A stretch of DNA of 64,000 bases from Amphibalanus amphitrite (Eukaryota; Arthropoda; Thecostraca; Balanomorpha; Balanidae), in contig NW_024881787.1 in assembly GCF_019059575.1 (NCBI RefSeq), forward strand, positions 186,001-250,000, given 5' to 3'. The notes beneath the pieces were generated by a model, which saw only the letters and a list, made by a program, of their open reading frames with translations, did no database searches and had not been told where the DNA came from. Shown piece by piece: positions 7,301 to 58,983 of the stretch. Position numbers and translations under genes: made by a program. Every line of letters begins with the position of its first letter. Position 1 is the first letter of the stretch.

Positions 7301-10300
7301 AACCAAAGCACATGTGGAATCTACCTTGACCTCCGCAAGGCATTCGATACGGTGGATATCGAAATATTACTATGCAAACTGTATAAATATGGTGTATGCA
7401 ATGAAGCGCATATGATGTTAAAATCATACCTAAATGAACGCACTCAATGTGTACAAATTGATGGTACTCAATCATCTATTCTTCCGATAAACATCGGAGT
7501 ACCACAGGGATCTATTCTAGGTCCACTTCTTTTTATATTGTACATAAATGATTTTATCTCCATATGTGATGACCACATATCTGTACTTTTATATGCGGAT
7601 GATACTGCCATTTTTATAGAAGGTGAAAATGAAAACGTACTTCAAGCCAGATTAAATATACTAATGCCTAAAGTTGCTGAATGGTTCGCTTCTAACCAGT
7701 TGTCCTTAAATTCTGATAAATCGTATTATCAGATATATGCTAATAAACGAACAGATTCTGAACTAGCAATTCAAATTGATGGTGCTGGAATTGCTCGTAC
7801 TAATACCGTTAAATACCTTGGTGTATTTATTGATGAAAATCTAAAGTGGAAATCACATATAGCCAAACTTCAAACCATATTGTCAAGGAACATCGGAATC
7901 ATGAATAGGCTGAAGTACCTCTTGAGCTCAAAACACCTTTTGTTGTTGTATCATTCTCTTTTCTTGAGTTATATTAACTACTGTTGCTTTATTTACACAA
8001 ATACATATCCAACTAATCTGAGTGAATTAGAAAAACTTCAAAAACGAGCGGTAAGAATCATCGATGGACAGCCGAGACTGGCACATACTTCGCCAATATT
8101 TAGGAAACTCAAACTCCTTAAAGGTAGTGTGCCAGCTTTCTTGGACCGTATGGAGTTAATGGCCCAGATAAGGAGAACCGGATTTTTAGAACTTATCCAT
8201 ACCTTCAAAACTCATGGAAACGTCTTAAATTCTTCAAATTTTGAGTACCCCAGTGCGAAATTCGCCCCGACGGGTTGTCGGTCGTACCCCAACCACATTT
8301 CACACCACTATGAACAATAAATGCACACACTGAAATCGCTATTACCGATATGCTCATCCAATCAAGTTTCGATAAACCCGTTCATCATCAGCTCCTGCGG
8401 TTTCGAACACGCCTGTTAGGTGGCTTCTGATGCTCGTCGAGGTCGGAATTTCCAAATACGCGTGGTGCGTCGGGCCGCGCGCTCTGACTTCGGCCAAGAA
8501 AAATGCGTCAGCTGATCATTGTCATTTCTGCCACTTGCGTGTGGTGAAATGGGGTCATAACTTATAAGACGGCTTTTTCATATCAATTATTTTACATAAA
8601 ATCATATTTCAAACCATAAATAATGTTCGACAGCCAAATAAAAGAAACAATACCAATACGGGCTTACAGTTTAAGGCTCGACATTGTGTTGTCTACGATT
8701 AGACAGCTGATAACTCATTCCCGTACGTCGTATGGTCGTAACACTATAATGACCTTTGCTTATTGTCACAAGTGCGCCGCATTCGCGATTGTTGCCCGAC
8801 GCCTGTTTGCAGGTGAGCCCACTACAGTTGTTATACATATCTAAAAACCGAAAAACTTTTAGGCGAAAAAGGCACTATTCCAGGCCCATTTTTGATTTTT
8901 TTTTTGCGATATTAGGTAAAAACAGAAGCTTCTTATCCTAGGAAAAATAAAATGGGAAATCTTTCAAAGGTGGCACACTACCTTTAAACTTAGGGATCTT
9001 GGACAACAACAAATGCTATTACTACTGTTTAGAAAACTCAATGGAAGCCTGCCTACTGCTATTGCTGAGTTATTTGTAACCTCTGAATCTAGTAGAACAA
9101 TTCGCTCCATTAAACATTTCCAAGAATCATTTACATGTAGAGTCTATAAAACACACACTTTATCATGGACTGGGCCTAGAGTTTGGAACAGAGTAATGGT
9201 GCCTTTATTTCCTAGACTATCTACGGTACCCAATTCGAAATTCATTATCAAAAAGCTCTCTAAAGCTTTCTTCCTAAGTCAGTATGATTGATTCACTTAA
9301 CCCGCGCACCGACGGGGGTCTGCGCCAACTTAGTACCGACGGGGGGGGGGGGCGGATGACCGCCCCCCCTGAGATCTCGAGAACGAAGCAAGATAGCGAC
9401 AAGCGGTAAACGGCATCGGATACGCACGGCCAAGATCTACAATTTTTACTAAGGTCATTTTCAGGTCAGGTCAAAGATGACGTCACAGGGGTCGAAAAAG
9501 TCAAAATGGCGGCGCTAGATATGGAGAGAGTTTTTCTCGAATAACTTTCGAATTAGTCAAGATAGGAACAAACTAAGGGCATCATCGTGATCCTCTCGTC
9601 AATCCGCATCGAATGATATATATGTTGACCTCGAAAGGTCAAGGTCAAAGGTTGACCTCAGGTCACGTGACCTCGAGGTCATCATGTATATCATTCGATG
9701 CGTCTTGACGAGCTGAACACAATGAGACCATCCACGCGTCTGTATCTTGTTCCTGTACGGAGTTATTGGCCAAAAACCTTTGGTGACCTTTGATGACGTC
9801 ACATGACCTCACAGCTGCCCAACAGCAAAACAGACCTCAAGGTAGTGAAGGTTGATCGTATATGAAGTCATGTATGGTATATGGGGCCATTCCGACCCGT
9901 TTTAGTGGTAAAAACAGGGAGTTGATTTTTCCCCCATTGACTTATAATGGGGAGGTCGCGAAATTGACCTGACCTTAGGTCACCGATATCAAAATTCCGA
10001 GATATACAAATTGTAGCTACTAATGACCTTATAATATCCTGCGACTTTCAAAGGCCTCCGACATCTACTGTAGCTCTGGCACGGTGACAAAGTTGCAAAA
10101 AAGTGACTTGAGGTTGGGTCATTCAAAGTGACCTGGTGACCTGACCTTAAAAGGTAGGAGGTTCAAACTTGCACACCATGTGTAAAATTGATGAGGTTAT
10201 AGTCATACCAAATTTCGCGGCGCTACGCGCCGCGGTTTTCCCGCTATTCGCGAAAAACCTCAGGGGGGGGGGGGGCGGATATCCGCCCCCCCCCGTCGGT

Positions 10301-13300
10301 GCGCGGGTTAATACAGTAGCTTTCACCAATATACGCTTCTAGCAAATAAATAGTACGCATGTTTTTTTATGCACATTATTTAGGGATTCATTTTCTCCAA
10401 CAAAACGATTTGCCTAAAATAGACAGGTGTTGCGGACAGTGTACGGCAGATGTGGTCTGCTGTGGGGCCAGGCGGGCTCCGCCGGCCTGGCGGAGCCCTG
10501 AGTTGCCGAGCATTGGGCCCCCGCCCCTATGACCCATCCGGGCCAACCTGGGTACCGGTCCCACTTGAAAGGGACCGGTCGGCCGCCCGGGCGGGCGGGG
10601 TGCCGGCCTGTCGGGTCGGGTCGGCGCTCCCCTCGCCCGGGCGGTGGTTAGGGGGCACCCCCGGGAAAGATGATTTTCCGGGGGTGCGGGCGGGGGCCCG
10701 CAGCCCGTCTGGCCGTCAAACATTAAAACCACGTTTATTGTAGGGTAGTAGTTCTCTTGCCCGTCTTTCCTTCCCAACTGTATTCCTTCTCCGTTTTTTT
10801 TTTCTCTCGTTGATGTTACCTCTCATTTTCGTTATATTGCTTAACCCGCGCCCTGCTGGGGGGGGGTGTTTGAACACCCCCCCTTGTGGTTTTTCGCGAA
10901 TATCTCAAAAACGGCGGCGCGAAGCGCCGCCGTTTTTGGTACACCTTATCATACATCAATTCTACACATGTTGTGAAAATTTCAGACCAAGGTCATTCAA
11001 GGTCAGGTCACCAGGTCACTTGAAGTGACCTCACCTCAAAAAAACTTTCAATGTCTGTCATAGCTACACCGAGTGACCGATCGCTTTGAAACTTTCAGCG
11101 ATTGCTAAGAGCAATAGCATGTACAAAATGTATATCTCAGAATTTTGATATCGATGACCTAAGGTCAGGTCAATTTTGCGACCTCCCCATTATAAGTCAA
11201 TGGGAGAAAATTGAAATGCGCCTCTTTTGGATGATTCACATTATAAACACTCCCAAACACCGAATTACAAGTGGTTTAGACACACTGAACTTGAAAATTG
11301 TGTCCGTGACCCTTGTTTATGCCCTGAGGTCATCTTAGGTCACGAATGGTATCTAACAGTTTTTCGCAAATAACTTTTGATAGAGGCATGCTAGAGCGAT
11401 GGAAACGCCTTAGATGTGTTCAGCTTGCCGATACGGATCGACTGATATGCAACATGACCCTTTCCGGTCAGTTCATGACCTTGACCTGAGGTCAAATTTT
11501 CAAGTTGACCTTTCAAGGTCAAGTTATAGTTCATTCGATGCGTCTTGACGAGAGGAACACGATGCCGGTAAAAGTAAGCTCGTACAAGGCTTGGGTCAAA
11601 AGTTATTGCAGAAAAACTGTTTTCGAAAAAATCGGTTATTTTTGCAGTTTTTGCCCCCTGCAGGCAAAACCGTTGACGTTAGGTCAAATCTGAGGGAATT
11701 ATTCAGAAAGGGCGTTAATAGGGCTATCGAATGCGCTTTTCCGCGGCGCTGTAGCTTTATTGGTTCCCGAGTTATGCGTTGGCTTCTTGGAAATTTTCGA
11801 CATTCGACCTGGAAATCGGCGAAATTTTGCCTTTAATGACCTCTGGTGACCTGACCTTTGACCTGACCAAAAAATTGACCGAAGTGATTTCGTCATTATT
11901 TTTTACGCTCTTTCGAACGCCGCCTTCCGCGTATCGCTACGTGGCCCAGGAGCCGAGTTACAAGGGGGGGTGTTCAAACACCCCCCCCCCCCCCCCAGCA
12001 GGGCGTGGAAATCCAGGACCCCCAGCAGGGCGCGGGTTAAATTGCATTAATTTTCTACTCCAACCACCTCGGAACTGGCCTCTGTGGGCTGTCTGACAAC
12101 AAGCTCTGCTTAGTTGGACAGCTTTACAGAGGCTCAGTGAATGACCTTGCTTGAATTTGACCAGAAATGACCATCTACGACCATCTTCCATGTATGTATG
12201 ACTGCTCCCCCTCTAATCCCTTCCTCCCACTAACAATACCCTGTGTAAGTGTGCATCAGTGGGCGTTTCAGGCGTAGAAGGGCAGTCACCAACTGTTTTC
12301 AGTTGTGACTACTTTGCTTCTCTTAAGCTACTATATTAACAGCATGCATACTCCACTGATATTTCTCTCGTTTTTTGCATTTTTTTTGTTTTTTTCCTTA
12401 CTCTTAGCTGGGAGTGCCGCGACTTATCATTTTAAGTTCACTGGTGTTAACGTAAGGTTCTGTGTGTCGCTGGGATAGAGGGAGGGGGCACTCCTGGTCA
12501 CCTGTTCATGGGTGGCGGTGTAGAAAAAAATCTGGTTTCAGGACATCAAATAATGTGAGATTGTGTAATTTGTTTGAAAATTGTACTTTTTGTAAAGTAA
12601 ATATTTACCAAAATACATACCATTCTTTTTCACAGGGATCAAAGACTTCAAAACAATTGTTGATGGATTTATTACAATGGTTGATGGACTCTCAAAAGCA
12701 GTGGAAGAAGAAAAAATCAAAGCAATTGGAGCCAGAAATCTCCTGAAGTCAATGAGCAAACAAAGAGAAGCTCAACAACAACAGCTTCAGGTTGGTAATC
12801 TCCATTTTTGCAAATCAATATGTGGTCTTCAAGTCACAGAACTAGAAGTGATGGTATATGTAGGGCTAATAATTTTTTTTTGCATCTAACATTATAACAG
12901 GTAATGCAGATTAATGAAACTTAAATCACATATTTTGCAACAATTATGCATGTGCACACGGGCGGTTGCAGACAGCGTTTGGGGGGCCAACTTGGCATAG
13001 GGGCCCCTGCTGACCCTCGGGGGGGGGGCTGTGCTTGCTTTAACCCGCGCCTGGCTGGGGGTCCTGGATTTCCACGCCCTGCTGGGGGGGGGGGGGTTGC
13101 TTGCTTGAACACCCCTCTTCTAACTCGGCTCTTGGGCCACGTAGAGATACGCGGAAGGCGGCGTTCGAAAGGGCGCCAAAAATAATGACGAAATCACTTC
13201 GGTCACTTTTTTGGTCAGGTCAAAGGTCAGGTCACCAGAGGTCATTGAAGGCAAAATTTCGCCGATTTCCAGGTCGAATGTCGACAATTTCCAAGAAGCC

Positions 13301-16300
13301 AACGCATAACTCGGGAACCAATAGAGCTACAGCGCTGCGGAAAAGCGCATTCGATAGCCCTTTTAACGCCCTTTCTGAGTAATTCTCTCAGATTTGACCT
13401 AACGTCAACCGTTTTGCCTGCAGGGGGCAAAAACTGCAAAATAGCCGATTTTTTCGGAAACAGTTATTTTTTTAAAATTTAATTTAATTCTTTTTTAAAA
13501 ATTTAGTCCAAACCTTTTGATTGGAAGGATTCACAAGGACAGAGCCACCGCTAGGCGAAGCTTGTTGCGGTGACCCTGCCCTCTACCCTCCGATCGCGCA
13601 ATTCCAGTTCTATGGCAGAATTTAGATTCCAAAGTTTAACGTGCGCACATAGCCGCGCACGGCCGGTCCCCTCACTGACTCCGTCTGGCTACGGCCTGCC
13701 ACCAACCGCAACCATACCTGTCAGGAGGCCCATAAATGTCAAGCGCCCGTCGCGCTTCGAACCCGGACTGTTATAACCGGGAACGCGTGCTCTCACCACG
13801 CGGAGTCCAACGCTCTACCAATTTAGCTACGGGACCGGCAATAACTTTTTTTTTGCAATAACTTTTTACCCAAGCCTTGTCCCAAGCCTTGTACGAGCTT
13901 ACTTTCACCGGCATCGTGTTCCTCTCGTCAAGACGCATCGAATGAACTATAACTTGACCTTGAAAGATCAGCTTGAAAATTTGACCTCAGGTCAAGGTCA
14001 TGATCTGACCGGAAAAGGTCATGTTGCATATCAGTCGATCCGTATCGTCGAGCTGAACACATTAACCCTCGCCCGCACATGGGGGGGGGGGGTGGTTGCC
14101 ACCCCCCCAGGCAGTCTTTCTGCTCTGCACTCAACATTTATAGAGCTAGAAGGCTGATTTTTCGTATAGCTGCTCGTCTATCCTTTCTTGATGTCCACTG
14201 AAAATTTCAAGTTTCTGTGATTTTTGGTTTCGGAGATATGACCTTGTTTTTCAGGTCATGTCATGACCCAAATGGCCAATTCTCAACATCTTGCGTTTGC
14301 CATGGGCCTTGTGAGCTTTTGACACCCTGATTTCGGCCTTTTTTGCCAGTCTTACCTCCCACCTATCATGGAACATGTTGTTGGACGATGTACAGGGGTC
14401 AAGGTCAGGGTCAAGGTCAACCTAGGTCATCTAAGATAATTGCGTTTTAGGCAAGCTGAATTTACTTTTTGTGAATTTGTTTGACTGCATTTCTGGTAAA
14501 AGCTTCTCAGATCATGATTTCATGTGATATGGACCCAAAAACAATCGGTGCACACATCAGTATACACACAGACACACACAGACATACAAACACATATAAT
14601 TGACCTTGACCTAACTTGACCTGAAATGACCTCAGCAGCAAAATTCTGGTCGGATAGTGTGACAAAGTGGTTCTAGCTGGCTTGGCACCAGAAAACAGCA
14701 TCGTCATCGGTATTTGATAAGCAGCGCACTTGATATCCAACGGTGACCCAAAACAGCAACATTTTTTAGTTTGACCTGACCTGGAAGGTCAATGACTGAC
14801 CTGAGAAGGTAAAACTGGGTATCATTGGATTCGTCTCTTCCCAAAGAATCTTTTTGGTCTTTACTGCTAAGCTCTATCTCCAACAGGAACGAAATGGCGC
14901 GGGGGGGTGGCAACCACCCCACCCCCCCATGTGCGTTCTAGGATGGGAAAATGGCATGTGCGGGCGAGGGTTAAAGGCGTTTTCATCGCTCTAGCATGCC
15001 TCTATCAAAAGTTATTTGCGAAAAACTGTTAGATACCATTCGTGACCTGAGATGACCTCAGGGACATAAACAGGGGTCACGGACACCATTTTCATGTTCA
15101 GTGTGAATAAGCCACTTGTAATTCAGTGTTTGGGAGTGTTTATAATGTCTCGTCCGAAAGAGGCGCATTTCAATTTTCTCCCATTACTTATAGATACCTA
15201 ATGGAGAGGTCGCAAAATTCATCTGACCTGCTTAGGTCATCGATATCAAAATTTTTGAGGTATACATTTTGTACATGCTATTGCTCTTAGCAATCTCTGA
15301 AAGTTTCAAAGTGATCGGTCACTCGGTGTAGCTATGACAGACATTGAAACTGTTTATGAGGTGAGGTCACTTTAAGTGACCTGGTGGCCTTACCTTGAAT
15401 GACCTTGGTCTGAAATTTTCACAACATGTGTAAAATAGGTGTACGAAAAACGGCGGCGATCCGCGCCGCCGTTTTTTTTTTTAGATATTCGCGAAAAACC
15501 ACAGGGAGGGGGGGGGGGTGTTCATGAAGCTGAAGTCAGCGGAGGGTCATCTGATGGGTCGGACGAGACCACTGTTATCGGCCGAGTGTTCAGCAGCGCC
15601 TCAGCACGACAGAAGGCAGTCTGCAGCTCTTCATCAGTCAGATCAGCGCTTTGTAGCGTTTTGCGCAGCGCTGTTTTAGCGAACTTCACCATAGCTTCAC
15701 AGCCGCCATTGAAGTGTGGTGCTCCGGGAGGGATGAATTGCCACTTGATGTAGAGATGTGCCGTCTTGTCCTGGATTTCATCTTCCTCCAGCTGACGTAG
15801 AAGTCGGCGTATCTCCCTGTCGGCGCCCACGAAGTTGGTGGCATTGTCGGATGTCACATGGCTCGGCTTTCCTCTTCTCGCGATGAATCGCATGAAGGCG
15901 CGAAGAAAGCTGTCTGTGTCTAGGCCATATGCCATCTCTAAATGAATGGCCTTCGTGTGTAAGCAGTAGAACAAGCACAGGTAGCGGTTCTGTCTTGTTT
16001 TTCCGCGTCCTTGTCGGGTCTCGAATGGTCCAGCAAAATCCACTGTTATGTGTTTAAATGCTGGGTAGGTCGGCTGCACGTGACACTGCAGCTTCGAGCC
16101 CATCTTCTGCACCACTGGCGGGCTCCGTCTTCTCACGCACTCTGGACAGGTGCGTATGGCACGCTTCACCGTCTCTCTGGCAGCGACTATCCAGAACTGC
16201 TGTCTCAGCTGAGACACGGTGTGCTCCACTCCCATCTCGTGGTCTCCGTCCTTGTGTGTCTGTCCAACGATGAGACGCGTTACATCATGCCGCTTGGGTA

Positions 16301-19300
16301 GTAGCGCCGGGTGTTTGGCTTCAAATGGTAAGTCTGACCGCTGCATACGACCGCCAACACGAATGATGCCATCTTCATCAATGAACGGTGACAGTCGCCT
16401 GATGCTACTGTCCTTCAGCTTTATCTGACTTGAGTTTTCCCGCCGAGTGATGAGCTGCTGCCTTTCCGGTTCAAACTCACTTTGAGCCTGCTTAATCCAG
16501 AATACTTCTGCAGTCTTCACCTCTGAAGGGTCCAGCGGAGGTACAGATGAAGCGCTTGAGGTCTTCTGATGCTCATGGCCTGACCGTCGCTTCAGATTTG
16601 CCACGAACCTGAGCACGTAACCAGTGATTCGCAGCAACTTCTTCGAGGTTGAGAAGCGAGAAGACTGCAAGCGGCAGTCCTCGTCCATCGTCTTCACCTG
16701 GGTGTTCTTCACGACACATTTCGTTCGTCGATCTTCACTTTTGTCGAAGTTCTTCAAGAAGCCCAGTCTTGCAGGCCATCTGTCGGCCGTCTCGCACAGA
16801 AAGCTGGGACCTTTCCACCACAACTCGCTGGCTGTCATTTCGTCCAAAGACTGACCTCTGGTAGGCAGATCAGCTGGGTTGCTGGCCCCAGGAACGTGCT
16901 GCCACTGTCTTGGTTCCGTCATCTCTCTGATTTCTGACACACGATGTGCCACAGAACTCTGAGAAATCGGCTGACCTCGTTGCGAACCCAGCACAGCACA
17001 TTGACTGAATCTGACCAGAAGAAGACTCCAGCCATTGGGATGTGCATCATCTTGCACACTTTCTTCACCAATCGAGCACCAAGAAGTGCTCCCCATCAGC
17101 TCAAGGCGCGGTATGCTCACTTCTCTCGACTTCGGTGCTACCCTGGCTCTTGACATGGCCAGTCTTGATGACCTTATGTCGCCCTGCTGACTCACCACAT
17201 ATATCGCAGCGGCGTAAGCTGACTCAGATGCATCAGAAAACACATGAATTTCCTGTCTGCTGACATTTTCGAACGGGTGGAGGCAGCGTGGCACGGTTAA
17301 CGCTTTTTTAATGTCGGCTTTCCATTTCCTCCATCTGTGCTCCAGCTCTGGTGTGAGGTCATCATCCCATCCCAAGTTCAGCTACCAAGTCTCTTGAAAC
17401 AACAGCCTTGCGGTGATCGTAAATGGAGAACAGAGACAGAGAGGATGGAATACGGATGCCAGTTTTTTGAGACAGTGTCTTTTTGTCTCCCTGTTTTCTC
17501 CATCTTCATTTGTCTTCGAGCTGGCTTCATTCGTCTTCAGACCGGAACTGACGCCGAGTGTGTCTTCTTGAGCCATCCAGATGACTCCCAACGTCTTGTT
17601 TGGAGAGGAATCGTGTTCAATCGTAACTGCTGGCCGCTGAGCCCTGTCTTCAGACGGTATACTCTCCATGACATCTGTATGGCTGCTCATCCATCTTCGA
17701 ATCTCCATTCCCGCCTCTTCCATGAGCTCTGTCAGCTGCGTCCGAGCCTCCACCGCCAGGCGCCATCTCTACGTTTTCAGAGGAAGTGATTGCGTCATCC
17801 ATGTAGAAGGAGTCTGTCACGACTTTTGAAGTGATTGGTAGCTTCTCTTCATGGATCCTGGCATTTCCGTTGACGACAAACTGCGCCGCGAACGGAGCTG
17901 CTGCGTTTCCGAATAGCCATCTGTTTGCTTCATACCGGGTGGCCCAAAAACAAAAAACGTTCCCAACTTTAAATCAATATTTCTCAGAAAGTGATAAAGA
18001 TACAACATTGAAACTTCGAATAGTCAATGCGGCACACATTTTCAGTAAATGGTGCGATTTTCATGGTGTTTGGTAATTTACTTCTTAAACGGTTCGTGTT
18101 TCAAGCATGCCATGTAAAAATTACTTTTTTGCTCCGATGCTTACTAGAAAATTTTAGTGAACGGGTCACTTTCACCCCGCGACACCGCGGCCTAGAGCCA
18201 TGACTTCAACTGGCAGCTAGTCTCATTGATGGTTCGGGTATCAGGATGACACATTCCCTCAGGCAACCACGATGGGTCTGTGCCAGCGGCATCGGAAGAA
18301 GTTTCCAGTTTTCTAACCATCTTGTGGCTCAAATGCTTTCCTGGCTGAATAGCCATCTGTTTGCTTCATAGATGTCGACTTGATGTTCTGGATCTCCATT
18401 CCGCCACAGCACCCTGTGGTACACCTTCGATCTTTAGCTGGAAGCTTCACTTGGAGAAACATCTCCTTCACATCCCCTACCAGCGCCACCGGGTGGTGAC
18501 GGAATGCAAGCAGAACTTCAATGAGATCGTTGCATATTGATGGACCTGCGTAGAGTTCGCTGTTCAGACTTCTTCCCTTAACCCGCGCACCGACGGGGGG
18601 GGGGGGGCGGATATGCGTCCCCACTCCCCCCTGAGGTTTTTTGCGAATAGCGGAAAATCGCGCCGCGAAATTTGGTACGACTATTCTCTCATCAATTTTA
18701 CACATGGTGTGCAAGTTTGAACCTCCTTACTTTTAAGGTCAGGTCACCAGGTCACTTTGAATGACCCAACCTCAAGTCACTTTTTTGCAACTTTGTCACC
18801 GTGCCAGAGCTACAGTAGATGTCGGAGGCCTTTGAAAGTCGCAGGATGTTATTAAGTCATTAGTAGCTACAAGTTGTTTATCTCGGAATCTTGATATCGA
18901 TGACCTAAGGTCAGGTCAAGCTCTCGACCTCCCCATTATAAGTCAATGGGGGAAAAATCAACTCCCTGTTTTTACCCCTAAACCGCGTCGGAATTGCCCC
19001 ATATACCATACATGACTTCATATACGATCAACCTTCACTACCTTGAGGTCTGTTTTGCTGTTGGTCAGCTGTAAGGTCATGTGACGTCATCAAAGGTACC
19101 AGCGGTTTTTTGCTAATAACACCGTACAGGAACAAGATACAGCTGCGCGGATGGTCTCATTGTGTTCAGGTCGTCAAGACGCATCGAATGATATACATGA
19201 TGACCTCGAGGTCATGTGACCTGAGGTCAACCTTTGACCTTGACCTTTCGAGGTCAACATATATGTCATTCGATGCGGATTGACGAGAGGATCACGATGA

Positions 19301-22300
19301 TGCCCTTAGTTTGTTCCTATCTTGAGTAATTCGAAAGTTATTTGAGAAAAACTCCATATCTAGCGCCGCCATTTGGACTTGTTGACCCCTGTGACGTCAT
19401 CTTTGACCTGACCTGAAAATGACCTTTGTAAAAGTTGTAGACCTTGTCCGTGCGTATCCGATGCCGTTTACCACTTGTCGCTATCTTGCTTCGTTTTCGA
19501 GATCTCAGGGGGGGGGGCTGTCATCCGGCCCCCCGTCGGTTCTAAGTTGGCGCAGACCCCCGTCGGTGCACGGGTTAAATCTGGCGACAGCGTCGTACAC
19601 CATTCTGACTTTTGTCGTGGAACGATCGTTCCTAACGACCGGGAAATGGGGGGCAAAAACCAGCCGTCCAGTTCAGCTGCCTGTCGTTCCTCGCCTTCAA
19701 GCTTCTTCATGTATCCTTTGGACAGCTAGTCTTCAAATATGGCGTCATACTCCGTCAGCAGGTCGGCTCTCTTCAGAGACTGTTCTGTCTTGGTTAGCCT
19801 TTTTTTACTGCTTGGTCATAGTTTCCGCTCAGGTTTGGTCTGTCAGCTCGCCATGGCACAGCCACCTCGTATCGTTCGCCATCAAACTTCATGGAATCCT
19901 TCACCTTCTTTTCTGCTTGTTTTTCCTTCATGTGACAGAGCTTCTTCATCTGAATTGTGCAGTGTGCACCCCAAGAAGATCCAAGCTGTTCATGACTTTC
20001 ATGGCTTCGATTTCTTCTTTGTTTTCTTTTTCCAGTTTCAGCGGAGCTCGTACATCATCAGGTATGTGCATCTTTAGATGCGTTCTCATCGTCTTGCTAT
20101 TGCTCCCCTGCTTCACATCACCCAGCGGGCCGAATGCCGTCTACCCCAGCAGCGTCTTGATTCCCACTGGATCACATTCGCCACCTCTTACTGTCTCGAA
20201 TGGAACAAAGAGGGACGTCGTGTTCTGTGTCAGCCCGATGAGCACATCCGCATCATTCTTCTCCGTGCCCGCTGGAAATGGCAGGGACTTCAGATGCTCC
20301 CACTTGAACTTTATGCCGTTCCAGTCCGCTGTCGTAAAAGCGCTGGAGAGGTCGTCAATGATGAACATGTTGACCTCGGTCCTCAAGCTGTCGTCAAGAG
20401 AACCCATCTTCACTTTCGATTTCTGCATGGTCACGTGCTTGTTTCCTTGCACTGTTCCCAGTTCGAGCTTCTCTTTGAACCCACTGAGGCCAAGTTCTTC
20501 AGTAACAGCTTCCGTGACAAAAGTGGCGTCTGAACAGGAGTCTAGGAGCGCGTTGACCACCACAGATCGGCCTGCCCAGCTCAACTTCACCGGCACTGTT
20601 CGGAATGCTACGGAGCTGGCTTCTTCAGATGTATGTTCTGTGCTGAAGACTTGAGAAACATTCGCGTTTGTCCTCTGTGGTGTCTCCAGAACAGCGGAAG
20701 TCTCGGCAGCTGGTGCCTCTGGCTGTGACGTTACATTCGTTTCAGCATGCAGTAGCGTATGATGATTGCCGCCACACGTCGAGACTGAGCAGCCGGGATA
20801 TCCGCGGCAATTGCGCCCGTGGTGAATCCCTGACAAACAGCGGAAGCAGACACCTTTTGCCTTGCAGAAATGGTACCTGCTGCCGACTGTCCACTGACGG
20901 AACATTGGACACACCTCCAACATGTGTTCTCCACTGCAGTATATGTTGAAAAGCTTTCAGAGCTTTTAGCAAATCAGCGTTTGGCTCAGCTTGAGCTTAT
21001 TCCGTAGAAGTGAAGAAATGATAGAGACACACTGAAAGGATAATACATGCACTGTCAGGCGACAGCTCATGCAGCAAAAGGGACAACCGACGGCAAGCAC
21101 ATGCAACACACATAACCAAGCATTTACAGCCAGCATGCTAAGCGACACATGCGCTAGCACCGACAAGACATCATAACGGGTACACTGTTTCTGTTTACTT
21201 TCCTTGTCGGAGGCTGTGGTTCTGGCATTGAAAGTCTTGTTGTCTTTCATCATGTTTTGATCTTTTTCATTGTTTTCTTTCTTCGAACTGACTGTTGCCA
21301 CTTCCGGTGCCACTTCCGGTGCCACTTCCGGAGCCACTCATCTCTTGGGCGTCTCTCTCGCATACTGCTTCATCTGCCAGCCAGCTGGCAAAAAGTGTGA
21401 AGCTGTCCGTTTCCTTCTGGTGTTGAACCCATCGCTTGTAGCTTTTAGGTAGCTGGCGGGCAGCTTTTCCTGAACAAGGATGTAATATGCAGAAATATGT
21501 GACAAATCTCCGGCATAGCCATGTTCTTCCAGGTTTGTACTCTGCACTCGGTCGGCTAAATCTTCCAGATCTCTGTATGAGCCGTGACGGACTGGCTTTA
21601 GCTGACGGATTTCATCAAGTTGGTACCGAATCCGCCGTCCCACTCCTCCATACTTCCGGTCTAACTCGCTTCTGGCCTTGCTGTACCCAGTTTCATTGGG
21701 GCTGTATCTTTGAACCATCTTCAGGGGATCTCCTGCTAGACAAGTGCGAAGTTGAATCATTTTAAATTTGTCCGGGATCTTTTCATTGCCAACAAACGCA
21801 TCAAATGTGTTTTTCCAGTCTTCATATTTGCGTTTATCCCCAGAGAACACCGGCAGAGACGGACACTTCAAGCCATGAGCGCTCCAGTCTATACGATCTG
21901 CGTCTTGCTTTTCTCCCGTCGGTGCTTTCGTCGGTGTTTCCGGCACTTCATCACATCTCTGGGCATTCGCAGAAGCTAAACTCAGTTTATCACGAATCAT
22001 TTTGTTTGCAAAACGGACCGATTCCCTTGCCTCCTTCTCCATTTGTTCAACTTCAGTCATCAGCTCCTCTCTTTCCGTTTGATCGCTCATCTTCTCACTT
22101 AAAGTTTCTCCAATTTCGTTCAATTGCTCAGTCAGCTGATCTAGAGACTCAAAGATGTCATCTGCTTTTTCTGCCGTTATTTCTGCACTTTCTACCAGTG
22201 AGTTTAACCTCCTCTGAGCCCTATGATGCTCTCTCACTGTCATTGCCATCTTCTTCTTCAGAGACATTTCGGTTTCTTCCGCGGCACCAGAGTCCCCGGG

Positions 22301-39802: not shown

Positions 39803-40868
<1,066 letters not shown>

Positions 40869-43126: not shown

Positions 43127-44460
43127 TTAACCCTCGCCCGTAAACGGCGATCTGCCACCTTCGCCCATGCAGGGGGGGTGCGACCCCCCCCCCTTGGCGT
43201 TTGAAAACGGAGCGTCGTAGAGCTTAGCGGAAAAGACCAACGGATTGCTCTCGCCGAGATCTCGCGATTGGTGGTATATTTTTTGGTCCTAGGTCAACAT
43301 TTGACCTACTTTTGACCGGTCAAAGGTCAAATTTTCGGAAAGAATAGACTTTTTCAACTTTCCGCGGCGATTGCGGCAAAACGGTGGGAGATATCGACTT
43401 GAAACCTTCACTATCGTGTTCCTTGATCAATTCTCTATCGTTTGGTATGTATTTCGTTTCCCTAGCTCTAAAAATGGCGCGTTGGGAGCGACGGAAGTCG
43501 GCAAGGTCACAGTCGGCGGCAGAAATTCGAAAAATCAAAATTTAAATTTTTGAAATCTGATTGTATTTTTGGATTTGGGAGGTCTATTTGCTCCCTATAG
43601 AAGCTAATATTGCTGCATATTCCCATTGAGGTGACAAGAATTAGCAAAATAGTGGTTCGGGCGCTTTTCAAATAGTACCGGACGCTGTTCCTCTTGTGAC
43701 GTCATAGCTCCGTGACCTGGGCCCTGTTTCACCGGTGATAGCAGCACGCTGCTATCAAATTGCGCGAGCTGACGTAATGTGATGACGTCATACTGCTGAC
43801 GTAAGGGGCAATTCTGGCGCACGATTGCCGCAATATTGTTTTACGTCATCAGCTAAATGTTCGAAGTTAATGTCCAAATTTTTCCTAAACCCAACTTCTT
43901 TTAAATACATCATATTAGAAAAATATATATCAAATATATTACTATCATGACTGCGTAAACTCTTACTTTTAGGCTAATACGTCACTTAATGCCGCCGCCA
44001 GGGTCGCGGCAATCGTGCGCCGTAACTACCCATTACGTCAACAGTATGGCGTCACGACATGACGTCAGCTCGCGAAACGTGATAGCAACTTGCTGCTATC
44101 ACCGGTGAAACAGGGCCCTGACCTGACCCGGTCAAGTTTCTTATACCATATGATAGCCATACTTGCCCTAACATGCATGGGAAGTTTCATCACGATCCAT
44201 CAACCGATGTCCGTACCACCGGCAGGAAACCTCGGGCGTTGGCACTCAGTTTGTGAAAATCCGGCCGGAGGCTGTTCCCTTTGTGACGTCATAACTCCGT
44301 GACCTGACATGACCCGGTCAAATTTTTTTATCAAAAGATGCGCAAGGTTTGCCCCATAAGGTTCCCAAAATTTGGCGGCGCTGCGCGCCGCCGTTTTTGC
44401 ACTATTTCCGAAAAGCCTCAGGGGGGTTGCACCAACCCCCCCTACATGGGCGAGGGTTAA
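43127..44460. mobile_element. AGGTCA-type TTAA element W (CCCTCGCCC subfamily), nested in U
   Basis: TTAA at 43127-43130 and 44457-44460. It starts CCCTCGCCCGTAAACGG with an inner CGCCCATGCAGGGGGGG, and ends CCCCCCTACATGGGCGAGGG. Hairpin GGGGGGTGCGACCCCCC. It contains TGACCTGACCCGGTCAA and TGACGTCA motifs, and the 400-bp insert X. Confidence 0.87.
43719..44118. mobile_element. TIR element X (GGGCCCTGTTTCACC), nested in W
   Basis: Termini GGGCCCTGTTTCACCGGTGA and TCACCGGTGAAACAGGGCCC are perfect over 20 bp, with 'TAGCAGCA' near both ends. TGACCT flanks both sides but is also the host's repeat motif, so the duplication length is uncertain. The termini resemble PIF/Harbinger-type MITEs. 400 bp, non-coding. 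Confidence 0.85.
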
Positions 44461-44705
44461 AACTTCTGAACTTTGTTGTGGTGCCTACAGAGTAAAAAGA
44501 ATCAGCTTTATGACAGTAATGTGGCCTGGGGAAGGAGGTAATTTTGGGCTGTGACGTCACATATTTGAAAGTTTGTGTTTGGAATATGGGAAGCCTAAGA
44601 TGTTTGAAAAATAAATGCCAGAACCGTGTTCCTGGTCGTCCAATCTATAAAGTCTGGCACAATTTAACTGGTTTTAACAACATTTTAGAAGGTGGGATAG
44701 TCCCT

Positions 44706-46211
44706 TTAAACCGCGCCATGCTGGTGGCCTGTGTTTTCCGTGTCATGCTGGGGGGGGGGGGGTTCATGTGACCCACTCTAACTTGGCTCCTGGGCCACGT
44801 AGCGACACGCGGTAAGCGGCAATCGAAAGAGCGTCAAAATAATGACGGAAACACTTTGTTTAGTTTTCAGGTCAGGTCAAAGGTCAGGTCGCTAGAGGTC
44901 ATCAAAGGTCAAATTTAGTCCATTTAAACAATTTTGGAAACTGCCAATGGATAAATCGGGAACCAATAGAGCTACAGCGCCGCGGAAAAGCACATTCGAT
45001 AGCCATTTTACAGACCTTTCTGATTATTGCCCTCAGAATTGACCTCGGGTCCACGGTTTTAGCCTCCAGATGGCTAAACTCCAAAAATATCTGTTTTTAA
45101 GAAAAACGTTTTCTGCAATACCTTTGCCTCAAGACAGTGACGAGATTTATTTTGCCAGCATCGTGTTCCTCCCGTCGAGACGCGTCGAAAGAACTATACG
45201 TTGACATTGAAATGCCATTTTAAAAATTTGACCTCAGGTCGAGGTCATGACCTGACTGGAAAGGGTCATGCTGCATATCAGTCGATCCGTATCGTTGAGC
45301 TGAACACATCTGACGTAGTTTCACCGCTCTAGCATATTTTTATCAAACGTTATAGCCAAAAAAACTGCTGGTGACCGTTCATGGCCTGAGATGACCTCAG
45401 GAGCATACAGAAGAGTGACAACTCACTGGTGCATTTTTCCTATTCAGTGTGTTTTGTTTACCTATGAACCGATGTTTGAGAGGGCATTGAACAACATTCG
45501 TCCAAAAGAGGCGCATTTCATAGTTTCTCCCATTGACTTGTAATGGAGAGGTCGCAAAATTGACCTGTCAAAAGTCCGAGAAACATGTTATACCTACATA
45601 TTGCTAAGGTCGTTCTCCACGGTACATGTTTTGCGCGTTTTTAATGTCGTTTTAGCGCTTTTTGATGTTTTGCGAGTTTTTCATGATCCGGCGTTGATCT
45701 GTACCATTAAATTACATGGTGCCATCTCTACGGCGGAAGATTTGTCAAAAATCGAAAAACGCGTGACTTCATAAAATCAAAAAACTGCAAAACTCGTAAA
45801 ACGCGTCAGTTGTGTCGGTTGTGTCATGCAAAACTCGTAAAACTTTTAAAAAGCGCAAAACTCTCATTTGTAAAAACGCGCGATTTTATCCAAACATTTG
45901 GATCGAATGTCTTATCAATCTTCTTATCAATCAATCAGTCTTATCAATCTCTGAAAGTTTCAAAGGTGATCGTTCAGTCGGTGTAGCTATCGCGAGTCTT
46001 TAAACTTTTTCTGCGGTAAGGTGACTTGACGTGACCTGGTGACCTGACTTTGAACGACCCGGGTCAGAAATTTTCTCAAATTGTTTTGAAAAGATGTATA
46101 AACACATGTACCAAAAACGATGGCGCTTGGCGACGCCGTTTTTGAGATATTCGCGAAAAACGTAAGGGGAAGGGCGTAAAAAACGCGCCCCCGTCAGCAC
46201 GGCGCAGTTTA
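44706..46211. mobile_element. AGGTCA-rich element V (diverged B subfamily, reversed)
   Basis: It begins at the TTAA shared with U, then ACCGCGCCATGCTGG and a G run. It follows C and O ('CTCCTGGGCCACGTAGCGAC', 'GAACCAATAGAGCTACAGCG') with many substitutions. A non-homologous insert of about 340 bp (45,610-45,950) has AAACTCGTAAAACGCG repeats. It ends with GGCGTAAAAAACGCGCC and CCCGTCAGCACGGCGCAGTTTA (decayed end) at about 46,211. Confidence 0.78.
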
Positions 46212-46992
46212 TTGGGAGAAAATTGAAATGCTCTCCTTCTAAACGAAAACACCCTCAGACATCGGCATACAGGTATATATGACACATTTCATCGGAAAAT
46301 TTCACTCGTGATGTGACCACTTTTATGTTACTGAGGTCATCTCAGGTCATGAAAGGTCTCCAGTAGGTTTTGGACAATAACTTTTGATAGAGATATGGTA
46401 GAGCAATGAAACGCCTTATATAATTATTTTCCTTCTCGACAATACGGATCGACTAATACGTAATATGACCTTTCCCGGCTAGGTGATGACCTTCACCTTA
46501 GGTCAAATTCTCAAAATGCCCTTTAATGTCAAATTCTATTTCATTTGACTAGTCTCGAAAAATGGAACACGATGCCGGTTAAACTAATCTCGTGCAGGTC
46601 TGAACCGAAAGGTATTACAGGTAAACGTCCCCTGCGAATACGTATATTTTACGGCTTAAACGTTTACCTACCTTAGGTCAAATCTGAGATAAGTAATAGG
46701 AACGAGCATAAAAAGAGGTATCGATTGCGCTTTGCTGCGGCGCTGTTGCTCAATCTCTTTATGAATCCTGACTTATGCGCCGCTTTGTCGAAAAATGCCA
46801 AAATCGGCGAAATTTGATTTGTCTCTGGTGCCCTGACCCTCCACCAGTTCGACCTAACCTTAACAATGACCTAAGTAGTTTGATAATAGTTTTTGACGCT
46901 CTTTCGAACGCCGCCTGGCGCCTACTGCGTGTCTCGACGTGGCCCACAAGCCGAGTTAGAAGTGGGTGTTCAAACACCCCCAGCAGGTTCAA
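46212..46992. mobile_element. Left-truncated diverged B-subfamily element
   Basis: Runs like B from 'GGGAGAAAATTGAAATG' to the right hairpin GGGTGTTCAAACACCC and CCAGCAGG, followed by TTCAATTAA. It joins V head to head and lacks a left end. It abuts the AGGTAGTGTGCCA element at TTAA 46993. Confidence 0.75.
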
Positions 46993-47652: not shown

Positions 47653-48477
47653 TAACCCCTTGCCGTTTCGCTCCTGATCAAGCTAGAGCTTTGCGGAAAA
47701 AACGAGCGTGTTGCCCGTGACGAGAGAAAGCCGATGATACCCAATTTTAAGGTCCTAGGTTATCGGTTGACCTTCCAGGTCAGGTCAATGACCCGGCCAA
47801 AAGGCGGGAAAATTGGGACCTGTTAGAACGTCGTAGTGTGGCTGCTATGGGGTTTTTCGGGGTGCTGATCACGAATATCATGCTAATTTTGATCACAGAT
47901 GATGTCTTCATTCATTTAGGCCAGGTCGGGTTAGGTCAGGTCAGGTCAACCAGTAGAGGTCCTGCCAGGTATTTGTAGTAGGTGTCAACCGCCTCTGACA
48001 GCCTCGTAACATGTTACGAAGGCACCAAAACTACTTTGTAAACGTTCATGTGGTTGCTTAATTCGAATTCAGCTCGAAAAAAACTGACCTAGAAACATGT
48101 CAAACTCGAAAAAGTGAACCGAGGTCACCAAAGGTCAATGACCTGACCTGACCTTCAGGTGACCTTGACACCCACCCTAATGCATGGGGGCAACATCATA
48201 TCACATGTTTGAACGCTTGAAACCACGAAAAGACTGCAAACGCGCTGCTAATGCGAGCCGACATACGCTGAATCGCGGTTCCGGCCAAACATGGTCTCGA
48301 AAAGTAGGTCACAGGTCAAAGGTCATTTGGGTCAGGGTCATGAAATTTTCAGGATGGGTGTTAAATTGATCAATGCGAGGGTACTGAAAGTTTCGTCGCG
48401 ATCAGCCGCTTTTTAAGCGAGTTATTCGCGAAAAACCTTAGGGGGGTTGCATCAACCCCCCCCCTGTGCGGGCGAGG
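47653..48477. mobile_element. AGGTCA-rich element S (R subfamily, reversed), innermost nest level
   Basis: Starts TATAACCCCTTGCCG and ends TGTGCGGGCGAGGTCATG; both ends have lost clear TTAA. The interior is the reverse of R: 'AACGAGCGTGTTGCCCGTGA', 'TTCGTAACATG...GTTACGAAG'-like sequences and TGACCTGACCTGACCTTC. The right hairpin is GGGGGGTTGCATCAACCCCC. Confidence 0.82.
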
Positions 48478-54830: not shown

Positions 54831-55912
54831 TTAACCCGCGCCCTGCTGGGGGTCCTGGATTTCCACGCCCTGCTGGGGGGGGGGGGGGGTGTTTGAACAC
54901 CCCCCTTCTAACTCGGCTCCTGGGCCACGTAGCGATACGCGGAAAGCGGCGTTCGAAAGAGCGTCAAAAATAATGAGGAAATCACTTCGGTCAATTTTTT
55001 GGTCAGGTCAAAGGTCAGGTCACCAGAGGTCATTGAAGGCAAAATTTCGCCGATTTCCAGGTCGAATGTCGACAATTTCCAAGAAGCCAACGCATAACTC
55101 GGGAACCAATAGAGCTACAGCGCCGCGGAAAAGCGCATTCGATAGCCCTATTAACGCCCTTTCTGAGTAATTCTCTCAGATTTGACCTAACGTCAACGGT
55201 TTTGCCTGCAGGGGGCAAAAACTGCAAAATTAGCCGATTTTTTCGAAAACAGTTTTTCTGCAATAACTTTTGACCCAAGCCTTGTACAAGCTTACTTTTA
55301 CCGGCATCGTGTTCCTCTCGTCAAGACGCATCGAATGAACTATAACTTGACCTTGAAAGGTCAACTTGAAAATTTGACCTCAGGTCAAGGTCATGACCTG
55401 ACTGGAAAGGGTCATGATGCATATCAGTCGATCCGTATCGTCGAGCTGAACACATATAAGGCGTTTTCATCGCTCTAGCATGCCTCTATCAAAAGTTATT
55501 TGCGAAAAACTGTTAGATACCATTCGTGACCTAAGATGACCTCAGGGCATAAACAGGGGTCACGGACACCATTTTCATGTTCAGTGTGTCTCAACCACTT
55601 GTAATTCGGTGTTTGGGAGTGTTTATAGTGTCTTTCGTCCAAAAGAGGCGCATTTCAATTTTCTCCCATTGACTTATAATGGGGAGGTCGCAAAATTGAC
55701 CTGACCTTAGGTCATCGATATCAAAATTCTGAGATATACATTCTGTACATGCTATTGCTCTTAGCAATCGCTGAAAGTTTCAAAGCGATCGGTCACTCGG
55801 TGTAGCTATGACAGACATTGAAACTTTTTATGAGGTGAGGTCACTTCAAGTGACCTGGTGACCTGACCTTGAATGACCTTGGTCTGAAATTTTCACAACA
55901 TGTGTAGAATTG
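54831..55912. mobile_element. AGGTCA-rich TTAA element O (B subfamily, reversed), right-truncated
   Basis: The left TTAA is at 54831-54834 with CCCGCGCCCTGCTGGGGG, a repeated CACGCCCTGCTGGGG and the hairpin GGGGTGTTTGAACACCCC. It follows B in reverse without interruption as far as ACATGTGTAGAATTGATGT, then stops before the terminal hairpins. It supplies empty sites for the SINE and for D in element C. Confidence 0.87.
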
Positions 55913-56261
55913 ATGTGTTTTAGTTCTCTTTCTTTATGAAGAAAACGAAACAAAATCGTCAAAGTCGGATCCTGGAACCAATCTTACCATTGCCGTAAAT
56001 AGGATTTGGCAGCACTGGCCGGAGTTAACTGCACTGATATCAATGATATCCTTTTACATCCAGCTAATCTTGTCCAATGATTTTGATAGCGTGAATGCTT
56101 ATAGATATTAGATGTTGCCTGAACGAAAGAATAAATGCATGTTGAATAGTTATGAATGTTATCAAATGCCGTGAATGCACATTCACGGCATTTGGTTAGA
56201 TTTTGCCCGAGTTATAAATGTCCGTAATGTTTCCTGCATCCGCCAGTGGAGGAAGAAGGGA
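55913..56261. other. Spacer with a short hairpin
   Basis: CAAATGCCGTGAATG and CATTCACGGCATTTG pair at 56163-56194 (2-nt loop). Otherwise nothing recognised. Confidence 0.5.
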
Positions 56262-57857: not shown

Positions 57858-58983
57858 TTAACCCGCGCGGGGCTGGGGGGGTAAATTTTACCCCCCTCGC
57901 GAATTTTTGCGATATCTCAAAAACGGCGGCGCGCAGCGCCGCCAAACTTTCAGTACCCTTTCTTACATCAATTTGACACCTTCCCTGAAAATTTGAGCGA
58001 AATCCGTCGGAAATTTTTTGAGAAATTGACGTTTTAGTGACGTCATGTTCGCCATTTTCGCCTCAAAAACGGCAAAAGTTCAAACGCCGCTAACATCTTC
58101 ATTTTTAAAGGAATCAAGACGTAACAAAAAAGGTTATACGTAATTTTACTTTGTCTATCAAATGGCTATCTCGGTTTTTTGAAAATTTTGGATTTTGGCC
58201 TAAATTTTTCAAAAAACTGATTTTTTTGGGAAAATCATTATAAAATCCAAAATTTTGAGTCTATCGAAAACACCGGAATATATGTCAGAGAAGTGGTCTA
58301 TGTGCACCTACATACCAAATTTTAGAAGAATCGGTTCAAAAATGTGGGAGTTATTCAAAATTTTATGACGTCACGACACACAAATTTTTTGAAAAATGAC
58401 TTTTTTGGAAGTTCTAGACCTCGTACGGAAACAAAAATAGCACCATTCGATTCGCCGTGAAAAACTGCATCAGATAGACACCTTTTTAGGCCTTAACAAC
58501 CAACTTCAAAATTTGACCTCACTTGACCTGACCTTGACCTGACCTCGACCTGAAATTCATCCAGAGGTGGTCCATATCACTTATTGAGTGTGCCTATTGA
58601 ATTATATGAGTAAAATGACCCATAAAACATGTGTCGCACATGCCCTTTTCTATATTTTGTTTTTTGGTGACCTGACCTGACCTGACCTGACCTTGACCTT
58701 GACCTCTGAATGATATTGTATGCAACTAATATTGTCTTGGTAGCCTAAGAACACGTTTTGGGCGATCAGTCTCAGTCCATGACTCCATTCTTCGGCAACT
58801 ACGGTGCAAGGCCGATACTGTAGAAACTTGCAATTTGTACCCTTGACCTGACCTTGACCTCAAACTTTAAATTAAGTACATGTTTTTAGTAGTTCGTGAT
58901 GAGAGCTTTCGATTGGCGTTTGAATTTTCCAAATCGGACCATTAGTTCGGGAGATAACAGGGGGGGTGCCCCGCGCGGGTTAA
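57858..58983. mobile_element. AGGTCA-rich TTAA element P (F subfamily, reversed)
   Basis: TTAA at 57858-57861 and 58980-58983. Termini are CCCGCGCGGGGCTGGGG and CCCCGCGCGGG. Hairpin GGGGTAAATTTTACCCC. GGCGGCGCG...CGCCGCC follows 'TATCTCAAAAAC'. A TGACCTGACCTGACCTGACC array lies at about 58671-58703. It shares its interior with F in reverse. Confidence 0.88.

What the first reader, a model, noticed from the sequence alone, without database searches (positions are those of the whole stretch)
9297..58983. A superfamily of TTAA-targeting elements saturated with AGGTCA nuclear-receptor half-sites
Seen: about twenty elements (A-F, H, I, K, K', L, O-T, V, W and fragments) share one architecture. It is TTAA, a TIR beginning CCC, a G-run/C-run hairpin, often a GGCGGCGCG...CGCCGCC hairpin beside 'TATCTC-AAAA', and a body full of AGGTCA/TGACCT in mixed orientations and spacings. 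Known: AGGTCA is the half-site of many nuclear receptors, and TTAA duplication with CCY ends is piggyBac-like. Inference: a diverse non-autonomous family has kept or amplified half-sites across subfamilies whose remaining sequence differs greatly. That suggests selection on the hexamer, for example receptor-driven expression, transposase or host-factor recruitment, or a structural role. It could also wire receptor binding across host introns.
Basis: partly seen in the sequence, partly recalled or inferred. Interest (0 to 1): 0.88.

Follow-up and report, generated by a model that had tools for sequence, protein, structure and literature searches.

The report
Barnacle transposons with 170-bp site lattice
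A group of jumping genes in a barnacle carries the DNA word AGGTCA in clusters about one nucleosome (170 bases) apart, and this spacing has been kept while the rest of the sequence changed almost completely, which suggests that the jumping machinery needs it.

Summary
AGGTCA occurs 287 times in 24.1 kb of element territory (10.9 expected) against 25 in the other 39.9 kb, and 594 times in a 200-kb genome sample (88 expected). The sites form clusters on a lattice of about 170 bp that runs from TTAA end to TTAA end; several gaps hold TGACGTCA. The autonomous partner was found: an intact piggyBac-type transposase in a 4.7-kb element with matching ends and a lattice in both arms. Relatives down to 38% protein identity carry lattices too (both ends paired in one, one end in two, none in one), though distant arms hardly align. 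Four other, delimited piggyBacs hold 0-3 scattered sites. AGGTCA is conserved above background. DNA between clusters has a 10-bp A/T rhythm typical of nucleosome positioning. Best reading: a cis-acting array of binding sites, most likely for the transposase, spaced by one nucleosome. The binder is unproven; a nuclear receptor is not excluded.

The parts
9297..10311 (.). Element, 1015 bp, 5 AGGTCA clusters, TIR TTAACCCGCGCACCGACGGGGG; family F2
   Evidence: copies at 18578 and 41433
10841..12040 (.). Element, 1200 bp, 6 clusters at 170, 323, 494, 658, 843, 1010; family F5
13040..15516 (.). Damaged F5 copy split by other insertions, with element 14062-14974 inside
14062..14974 (.). Element, 913 bp, 4 clusters; inserted in an F5 copy, empty site seen
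18578..19578 (.). Element, 1001 bp, 5 clusters, inserted in a damaged BEL/Pao copy; the BEL copy at 59491-63855 spans the junction at 74% identity
22570..23600 (.). Partial copy of the 57858 family, inverted; outer limits approximate
24189..25110 (.). Element, 922 bp, copy of 14062 in the other orientation (96% identical)
26566..27629 (.). Element, 1064 bp, ends paired by eye
28588..29505 (.). Left part of an F11-family element with 3 clusters; element 29506-30432 is inserted in it and at least 30433-30581 continues it
29506..30432 (.). Element, 927 bp, 2 clusters plus TGACGTCA at about 184; homologs span the junction
30931..31364 (.). Fragment of the F2 family
35300..36839 (.). Compound of F11-type pieces with AGGTCA clusters
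38945..40931 (.). Element with element 39803-40868 nested in it
39803..40868 (.). Element, 1066 bp with a 189-bp G run, 4 clusters; homologs span the junction
41433..42440 (.). Element, 1008 bp, F2 copy, ends paired by eye
43127..44460 (.). Element, 1334 bp, sparse sites; carries another inverted-repeat element at 43719-44118; a homolog in L014 spans the junction
44705..46211 (.). F5-related copy, 77% identical to 10841 over its best stretch
46313..46981 (.). F5-related fragment, about 68% identical
47656..48435 (.). Copy of the 39803 element body without its ends
54831..55916 (.). F5 copy, 97% identical to 10841
57858..58983 (.). Element, 1126 bp; clusters at 672, 829, 994 and TGACGTCA at about 180 and 508

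Best explanation
These are deletion derivatives of a clade of piggyBac-type DNA transposons whose long arms (about 0.7-1.2 kb in the arms that could be measured, with one shorter exception) hold a lattice of short binding sites, AGGTCA clusters or TGACGTCA, one every ~170 bp counted from the TTAA tip. Shown: the lattice, its tie to this transposase clade in the loci read, its conservation, and the absence of short derivatives in the sample. Inferred: the sites are bound in cis by the transposase, probably through its C-terminal zinc-binding CRD, and the spacing puts one nucleosome between sites so that they fall in linker DNA. A chromatin-wrapped arm can then load several transposases and be synapsed with the other arm. 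Elements that lose the lattice stop moving, so only derivatives with about 5-8 intervals amplify. My separate odds: cis-acting feature of this piggyBac clade 0.93; bound by the transposase 0.5; spacing set by nucleosomes 0.5.
For: Autonomous element: C33, 4,723 bp, TTAACC(T/C)(T/G)CGCCCTGGTG ends, intact transposase frame, 33 AGGTCA, clusters 165, 324, 488, 652 bp from one end and 189, 356, 530, 674 from the other. Three transposase copies are 100% identical by the tool's rounding, and two loci are 99.95% identical over 4,102 bp, so movement was recent. Four relatives examined have clusters in their flanks: L039 with both ends paired, L038 and L041 with one end, L040 with none. Four delimited other piggyBacs hold 0, 1, 2 and 3 AGGTCA and no TGACGTCA; a fifth (L031) was not delimited. 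The 5 and 5 separate 100/100 in a tree. Arms of the distant members do not align apart from one 28-bp piece, yet keep the spacing. Lattice: cosine score 0.72 against null 0.11 +- 0.07, 0 of 2000 trials, and 0 of 1000 in three further sets of 12, 11 and 6 families; AGGTCA ranks first of 967 hexamers for 150-190 bp spacing. Conservation: 20 of 20 pairs above background; with sites masked before alignment 11 of 13; within four young families 336 of 352 kept against 11,307 of 12,814 background hexamers. None of 28 two-ended elements is shorter than 880 bp. Inward polarity 129 of 165. A second copy of the tip motif about 27 bp inside: at one end only in 15 of 33, at both in 0, which recalls the asymmetric ends of T. 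ni piggyBac. A/T-dinucleotide power near 10 bp: 3.35 against 1.51 in controls, 0 of 5000 bootstraps; 2.32 against 1.65 in 60 non-homologous groups, fraction 0.0001 of 20,000.
Against: No binding or chromatin data exist here. A minimal working T. ni piggyBac has 35 and 63 bp ends, so sites 165-700 bp inside would be a new demand. Clusters in the flanks of L040, whose ends were not found, could belong to neighbouring elements. In the pooled ranking AGGTCA is 8th of 216 hexamers by conservation; seven rarer ones (n 25-52) score higher. Masked alignment went the other way in 2 of 13 pairs. The centre phase of the A/T rhythm is weak (p 0.025-0.076), a smaller excess at 7.25 bp is unexplained, and in the autonomous loci alone the top period is 9.25 bp. 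Some elements lack clusters in one half (29506, 57858, L016_1247), and L039's right arm has one cluster and one lone site. Family F3 left ends point outward (0.37). The elements share deep ancestry, so they are not independent trials.
Confidence: 0.55

Rival explanations
1. The lattice recruits host factors: a nuclear receptor with strict AGGTCA preference and a bZIP protein for TGACGTCA. They keep the element open, or drive transposase expression in the germ line, with linker spacing for access.
For: AGGTCA is the textbook receptor half-site and TGACGTCA the CRE (recalled). Of the single-step variants GGGTCA (49) is the most raised after ACGTCA (71), which fits RGGTCA.
Against: Elements without a gene keep the array, so expression alone cannot be the reason. 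AGTTCA, tolerated by some receptors (recalled), is not raised (12). The commonest same-strand step is 5 bp (44), not a DR1-DR5 step, though 10 (29) equals DR4. In the loci read the motif follows one transposase clade. Inward polarity relative to ends.
Confidence: 0.28
2. Ancestral low-complexity or satellite-like tandem unit of about 170 bp with an AGGTCA box, now decayed; spacing is a relic.
For: Spacing near typical satellite monomer lengths (recalled); families share deep ancestry.
Against: Units within an element are hardly more alike than shuffles (median 18.0, mean 21.0, shuffled mean 18.1, n=37; five pairs reach 28-66). TRF lists no such array in the window. AGGTCA is conserved above the rest. 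Spacing outlasts alignable sequence.
Confidence: 0.05
3. Simple descent with neutral decay from an ancestor rich in AGGTCA.
For: Many elements align to each other at 65-97%.
Against: In 16 of 20 pairs, those most diverged, the hexamer survives intact in 53-80% of cases against 11-34% for other hexamers; with masked alignment 47-72% against 11-31% in 11 of 13 pairs.
Confidence: 0.02
4. The clusters position nucleosomes or fold the arm for a structural reason (for example hairpins or a chromatin fibre bringing the ends together), with no specific protein reading AGGTCA.
For: 10-bp A/T rhythm between clusters; at least one cluster lies in a local inverted repeat (I5).
Against: Six-base specificity: most single-step neighbours are near background. 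A purely structural role would not need one hexamer.
Confidence: 0.1

Closest known systems
piggyBac of Trichoplusia ni and its transposase (PDB 6x67/6x68)
   Same: TTAA target, CCC ends, DDE_Tnp_1_7 domain, Foldseek E 4.9e-29, phmmer E 1.6e-56, unequal ends, zinc-binding tail, CRD half-site TGACGCATG and cryptic site TGACGTACG close to TGACGTCA (passages)
   Different: T. ni ends work with 35 and 63 bp; here sites repeat every ~170 bp through long arms, with AGGTCA as main motif
piggyBat of Myotis lucifugus (PMC11707139)
   Same: Several transposase sites in one end, repeated with a fixed step; extra sites affect activity (title and passages)
   Different: Step of 44 bp over about 120 bp, motif GCGGGA plus palindrome; only 79 bits to this transposase
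hAT elements (Hermes, Ac/Ds) with subterminal repeats read by transposase zinc fingers
   Same: Several transposase domains contact one end (Hermes), and Ds derivatives share subterminal repeats (abstract starts in search listings)
   Different: Different superfamily and target site; no nucleosome-length step known to me (recalled)
Other piggyBac families of the same barnacle genome (TIR CCCATTA(G/A)NGC)
   Same: Same superfamily, open frames, several copies
   Different: 0-3 scattered AGGTCA, no lattice, and a separate clade
Alpha satellite with CENP-B boxes (recalled)
   Same: A short protein-binding box at nucleosome-length steps, with a link to a transposase-derived protein
   Different: True tandem monomers in arrays; here units are not homologous and sit inside a transposon

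Membership tests
piggyBac superfamily | TTAA target site duplication | tested here: met
   TTAA at both ends; homologous DNA spans the junction with one tetranucleotide for 5 of 11 elements tested, small gaps in some alignments
piggyBac superfamily | Terminal inverted repeats beginning CC(C/Y) | tested here: met
piggyBac superfamily | Related transposase with DDE_Tnp_1_7 domain in an element with the same ends | tested here: met
   E 9.4e-60 inside the C33 element with TTAACCCGCGC right end; L039 carries the CCCTAGAACGCC end of family F8
piggyBac superfamily | Transposase fold | tested here: met
   model of homolog P0121, mean pLDDT 73; best PDB matches piggyBac and piggyBat
piggyBac superfamily | Seamless excision and insertion activity | not testable with these tools
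   needs a transposition assay
MITE (short non-coding derivative) | Non-coding, many copies, ends shared with an autonomous element | tested here: met
   contig C290, which holds the window, has no row among the 116 DDE_Tnp_1_7 matches listed
MITE (short non-coding derivative) | Short length, usually under about 600-800 bp (recalled) | tested here: not met
Nuclear receptor response element | RGGTCA half-sites | tested here: met
Nuclear receptor response element | Preferred dimer spacing (DR1-DR5, IR1 and the like) | tested here: inconclusive
   Commonest same-strand steps 5 (44) and 10 (29), which follow from AGGTC runs; 10 equals DR4
Nuclear receptor response element | Receptor binding | not testable with these tools
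   needs DAP or ChIP
Satellite-derived array | Homologous head-to-tail units | tested here: not met

The most novel reading that the evidence does not exclude
A transposon clade has built nucleosome spacing into its DNA: transposase sites are placed one per linker across both arms, so that the chromatin-wrapped element, not naked DNA, is the true substrate. Element length is then counted in nucleosomes. The spread of this design made AGGTCA one of the commonest words of a whole animal genome, about 3 per kb in the sample.
Probability: 0.35. Interest if true: 0.9.

Novelty: new variant of a known kind. Interest (0 to 1): 0.82.

Why it matters
How DNA transposases find and pair their ends inside chromatin is little known, because most work uses short naked ends (my judgement). 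Here is a natural system with arrays of sites at nucleosome-length steps, signs of recent activity, an identified transposase and a contrasting set of piggyBacs in the same genome without the arrays. If the sites are read by host receptors instead, about 13% of the sampled bases lie in such arrays (26,668 of 200,000, flanks of 170 bp counted in), which would be a very large sink or network for the receptor. Either answer can be reached with standard assays.

Tried and rejected
Tandem-repeat origin: units compared with motif masked, within and between families; little excess. The shuffles kept single-base content only.

Neutral descent: rejected by hexamer conservation with plain and masked alignment; rows against it: pairs 40036/48435 and 22698/58860 in the masked test, and seven rarer hexamers rank above AGGTCA in the pooled list.

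Nucleosome dyad phase: only weak support. Phase from site edges: no clear signal.

In one search the family F11 was represented by a piece cut short by an insertion, its right 'end' not being a true end. One search repeated the test with a complete copy, without F11, and with six families: best scores 0.72, 0.74, 0.77, none of 1000 random trials as high in each.

Papers: searches listed no report of AGGTCA or nucleosome-length arrays in piggyBac elements; this covers only the open library and those terms, and only listed titles and abstract starts were looked at. Passages were read of PMC7351741 and PMC11707139. Hermes (PMC10368747) and Ac/Ds (PMC3260210) were seen in search listings only.

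A whole-genome count of an AGGTCA run did not complete. The end word TTAACCCTCGCG was counted genome-wide: 510 and 517 on the two strands against 72 and 69 for the reversed control. The loci L001-L008 came from that word, so family F7 is over-represented among the 31 elements.
Full report
WHAT AND WHERE. The window is G000:C290:186001-250000 of an 807.6-Mb genome. The first 480 residues of the BEL/Pao frame at 59494-63855 are 97% identical, over 68% of that stretch, to an Amphibalanus amphitrite protein, and two A. amphitrite proteins match the transposase below at 98% over 51%. The host is therefore a barnacle, A. amphitrite or a very close relative (inference; the tool names no species for G000). 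An IFT20 exon lies at 12638-12790.

THE OBSERVATION. AGGTCA occurs 312 times on both strands: 287 in 24.1 kb of element territory (10.9 expected), 25 in the remaining 39.9 kb. Most single-letter neighbours of the word lie near background in the elements; ACGTCA (71, largely from TGACGTCA) and GGGTCA (49) are the most raised. Elements have TTAA-CCC ends with perfect inverted repeats. For 5 of 11 elements tested, homologous DNA elsewhere spans the junction of the two flanks, so these are real insertions; for 14062, where the letters were read, the duplication is 4 bp.

THE LATTICE. Distances between AGGTCA sites in the window peak at 10-20, 150-180 and 320-370 bp, with few at 60-110. In 20 stretches of 10 kb from the genome (L009-L028) AGGTCA is the third commonest hexamer (594 against 88 expected), with peaks near 165, 345, 515 and 685 bp and no pairs at 80-100. 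Among 967 hexamers with 90 or more occurrences in that sample it has the highest excess at 150-190 bp: ratio 26.5, median of all 1.0. Thirty-one two-ended elements from the window and fetched loci mostly show one plan: TTAA end, about 165-190 bp, cluster, about 170 bp, cluster, to the other TTAA, with some double gaps and some bare halves. In 12 family representatives 52 of 61 gaps lie in 130-220 bp (median 172); the cosine score is 0.72 at a period of 176 against 0.11 +- 0.07 for random placement, 0 of 2000 trials as high. One of those representatives (F11) was a truncated piece; with a complete copy instead, without F11, and with six families only, the scores are 0.72, 0.74 and 0.77, each above all 1000 random trials. 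In three elements with double gaps that were printed, TGACGTCA stands at missing points. Over the window and sample, TGACGTCA (107) lies mostly at 0-40, 140-200 and 300-360 bp from AGGTCA sites and peaks at 160-200 bp from element ends. Not every gap is filled: 29506, 57858 and L016_1247 have a long stretch without AGGTCA clusters.

NOT A DECAYED SATELLITE. With motifs masked, units within one element are hardly more alike than shuffled sequence (median 18.0, mean 21.0, against a shuffled mean of 18.1, 37 comparisons; five pairs reach 28-66), and TRF lists no such array in the window.

SELECTION. In 20 pairwise alignments of related copies AGGTCA is kept whole more often than other non-CpG, non-run hexamers in 20 of 20; for example 71% against 21% for a pair about 66% identical. 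With all AGGTCA sites masked before alignment, so that they cannot steer it, 11 of 13 pairs still show the excess (for example 20 of 31 against 193 of 974); two pairs do not, 12 of 30 against 436 of 978 and 12 of 26 against 697 of 1209. In the pooled list AGGTCA is 8th of 216 hexamers; the seven above it are rarer (25-52 cases against 424). Within four young families (18 copies) 336 of 352 consensus sites are kept against 11,307 of 12,814 background hexamers. Neutral descent does not explain this.

THE AUTONOMOUS PARTNER. The genome holds at least 116 matches to DDE_Tnp_1_7. I read the DNA around ten transposase loci, nine of them from that list and one (C1010) from a protein search, plus a second copy of one. 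Five (L029-L033) show no lattice of their own. Four of these have ends CCCATTA(G/A)NGC and hold 0, 1, 2 and 3 AGGTCA and no TGACGTCA between their ends; L031's ends were not found. Clusters do lie outside the ends of L030 and L032, in neighbouring DNA, so clusters in a flank are not proof by themselves. L034 (contig C33) is different: an intact transposase frame in a 4,723-bp element with ends TTAACC(T/C)(T/G)CGCCCTGGTG and 33 AGGTCA, clusters at 165, 324, 488 and 652 bp from one end and at 189, 356, 530 and 674 bp from the other. A second locus is 99.95% identical over 4,102 bp, including the gene and the right end but not the left 620 bp; a third has the same transposase. Four relatives of this protein (38-54% identical over the longest matches; L038-L041) were then read, and all four have AGGTCA/TGACGTCA clusters in the flanks. 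Both ends could be paired for L039 (3,971 bp, 13 AGGTCA and 4 TGACGTCA); L038 has a left end with its first cluster 172 bp inside, L041 a right end with its first cluster 200 bp inside; for L040 no ends were found and its clusters could be a neighbour's. L039 carries the end CCCTAGAACGCC of one of the non-autonomous families (F8). In a tree of 24 proteins the 5 lattice and the 5 non-lattice transposases lie on opposite sides of a 100/100 branch (one row is a fragment, stops read as X, long branches flagged). Arms of the distant members show no similarity beyond one 28-bp piece when motifs are masked (L034 and L041 are closer and do align in part), yet keep the step: L039 left 172, 185, 187, 204, 171, 180; L034 left 165, 159, 164, 164. 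Spacing and word have outlived the sequence around them.

THE PROTEIN. Homolog P0121 (72% identical to the L034 protein) matches T. ni piggyBac (phmmer E 1.6e-56, 195 bits) and, more weakly, piggyBat (79 bits). An AlphaFold2 model of P0121 (mean pLDDT 73) has piggyBac and piggyBat as its best PDB matches. The L034, L039, L040 and L041 proteins end in a cysteine/histidine-rich tail like a CRD, with an insert after the first CxxC that the five non-lattice proteins lack (tails printed; L038's tail was not read). In T. ni piggyBac the CRD dimer binds a 19-bp palindrome whose second site is TGACGCATG, and TGACGTACG is a cryptic site (passages of PMC7351741). TGACGTCA on the lattice has the same TGACG half, and AGGTCA shares GTCA. 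This is a lead, not a test.

FEATURES THAT POINT TO TRANSPOSITION. Between 100 and 260 bp from an end 129 of 165 sites point inward (55 of 76 left, 74 of 89 right; family F3 left ends are the exception at 0.37); at 260-430 bp 149 of 206, at 430-600 bp 68 of 116. In 15 of 33 elements one end, and only one, has a second copy of the tip motif about 27 bp inside; 0 of 33 have it at both ends and 18 miss the 7-of-8 cut-off, which recalls the asymmetric ends of piggyBac. Of 28 two-ended elements in the window and sample none is shorter than 880 bp although 60 bp was allowed: the short derivatives usual for such families (recalled) are missing there. Non-coding elements have no gene to express, so a pure promoter role does not explain why they keep the array.

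NUCLEOSOME SIGNAL. DNA between clusters shows a rhythm of A/T dinucleotides near 10 bp: power 3.35 against 1.51 in 473 control stretches, 0 of 5000 bootstraps, with a smaller, unexplained excess at 7.25 bp, and 7.7 SD above 60 dinucleotide shuffles. With one interval per homology group (60) it is 2.32 against 1.65, fraction 0.0001 of 20,000. The phase at the centre of the interval is the one expected of a nucleosome dyad (recalled) but only at p 0.025-0.076, and the autonomous loci alone peak at 9.25 bp. I take nucleosome-length spacing as shown and nucleosome positioning as likely.

VERDICT. A real and conserved feature, widespread in the sampled genome: about 13% of the sampled bases lie in such arrays. 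In the loci read it belongs to one piggyBac clade. Most likely the sites are read by the transposase in cis, with one nucleosome between them; a host receptor is the main rival.

Noticed in passing
window 43719-44118: A different inverted-repeat element (arms about 113 bp, ends GGGCCCTGTTTCACC) sits between two copies of TGACCT, as if it had used a lattice site as its 6-bp target.
   Followed up: partly
window 27694-28593: About three tandem copies of a 301-bp end segment (TTAACCTTCCAGGCG...) lead into the F11 element at 28588.
   Followed up: no
window 39821-40009: A 189-bp run of G (96% match) in the end hairpin of the 39803 element.
   Followed up: no
window 59494-63855 and 15522-22396: One open BEL/Pao frame and one damaged copy; the damaged copy carries element 18578-19578 and the open one spans that junction.
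   Followed up: partly
window 5390-8988: Non-LTR retrotransposon with a reverse transcriptase frame at 5942-8320; a related piece at 48973-49485.
   Followed up: no
window 12638-12790: Exon of IFT20 (Pfam E 7e-19), so some of the elements probably lie in introns of a host gene.
   Followed up: partly
G000:C103, C188, C913 and others: Another piggyBac family (L032 type, CCCATTAGTGCCCA ends) has nine copies with the same profile score and two very close to it, which suggests recent activity beside the lattice clade.
   Followed up: no
window 32168-33961, 53385-53897, 56264-56510: Degenerate 21-bp repeats, a GC-rich minisatellite and a long AG run.
   Followed up: no
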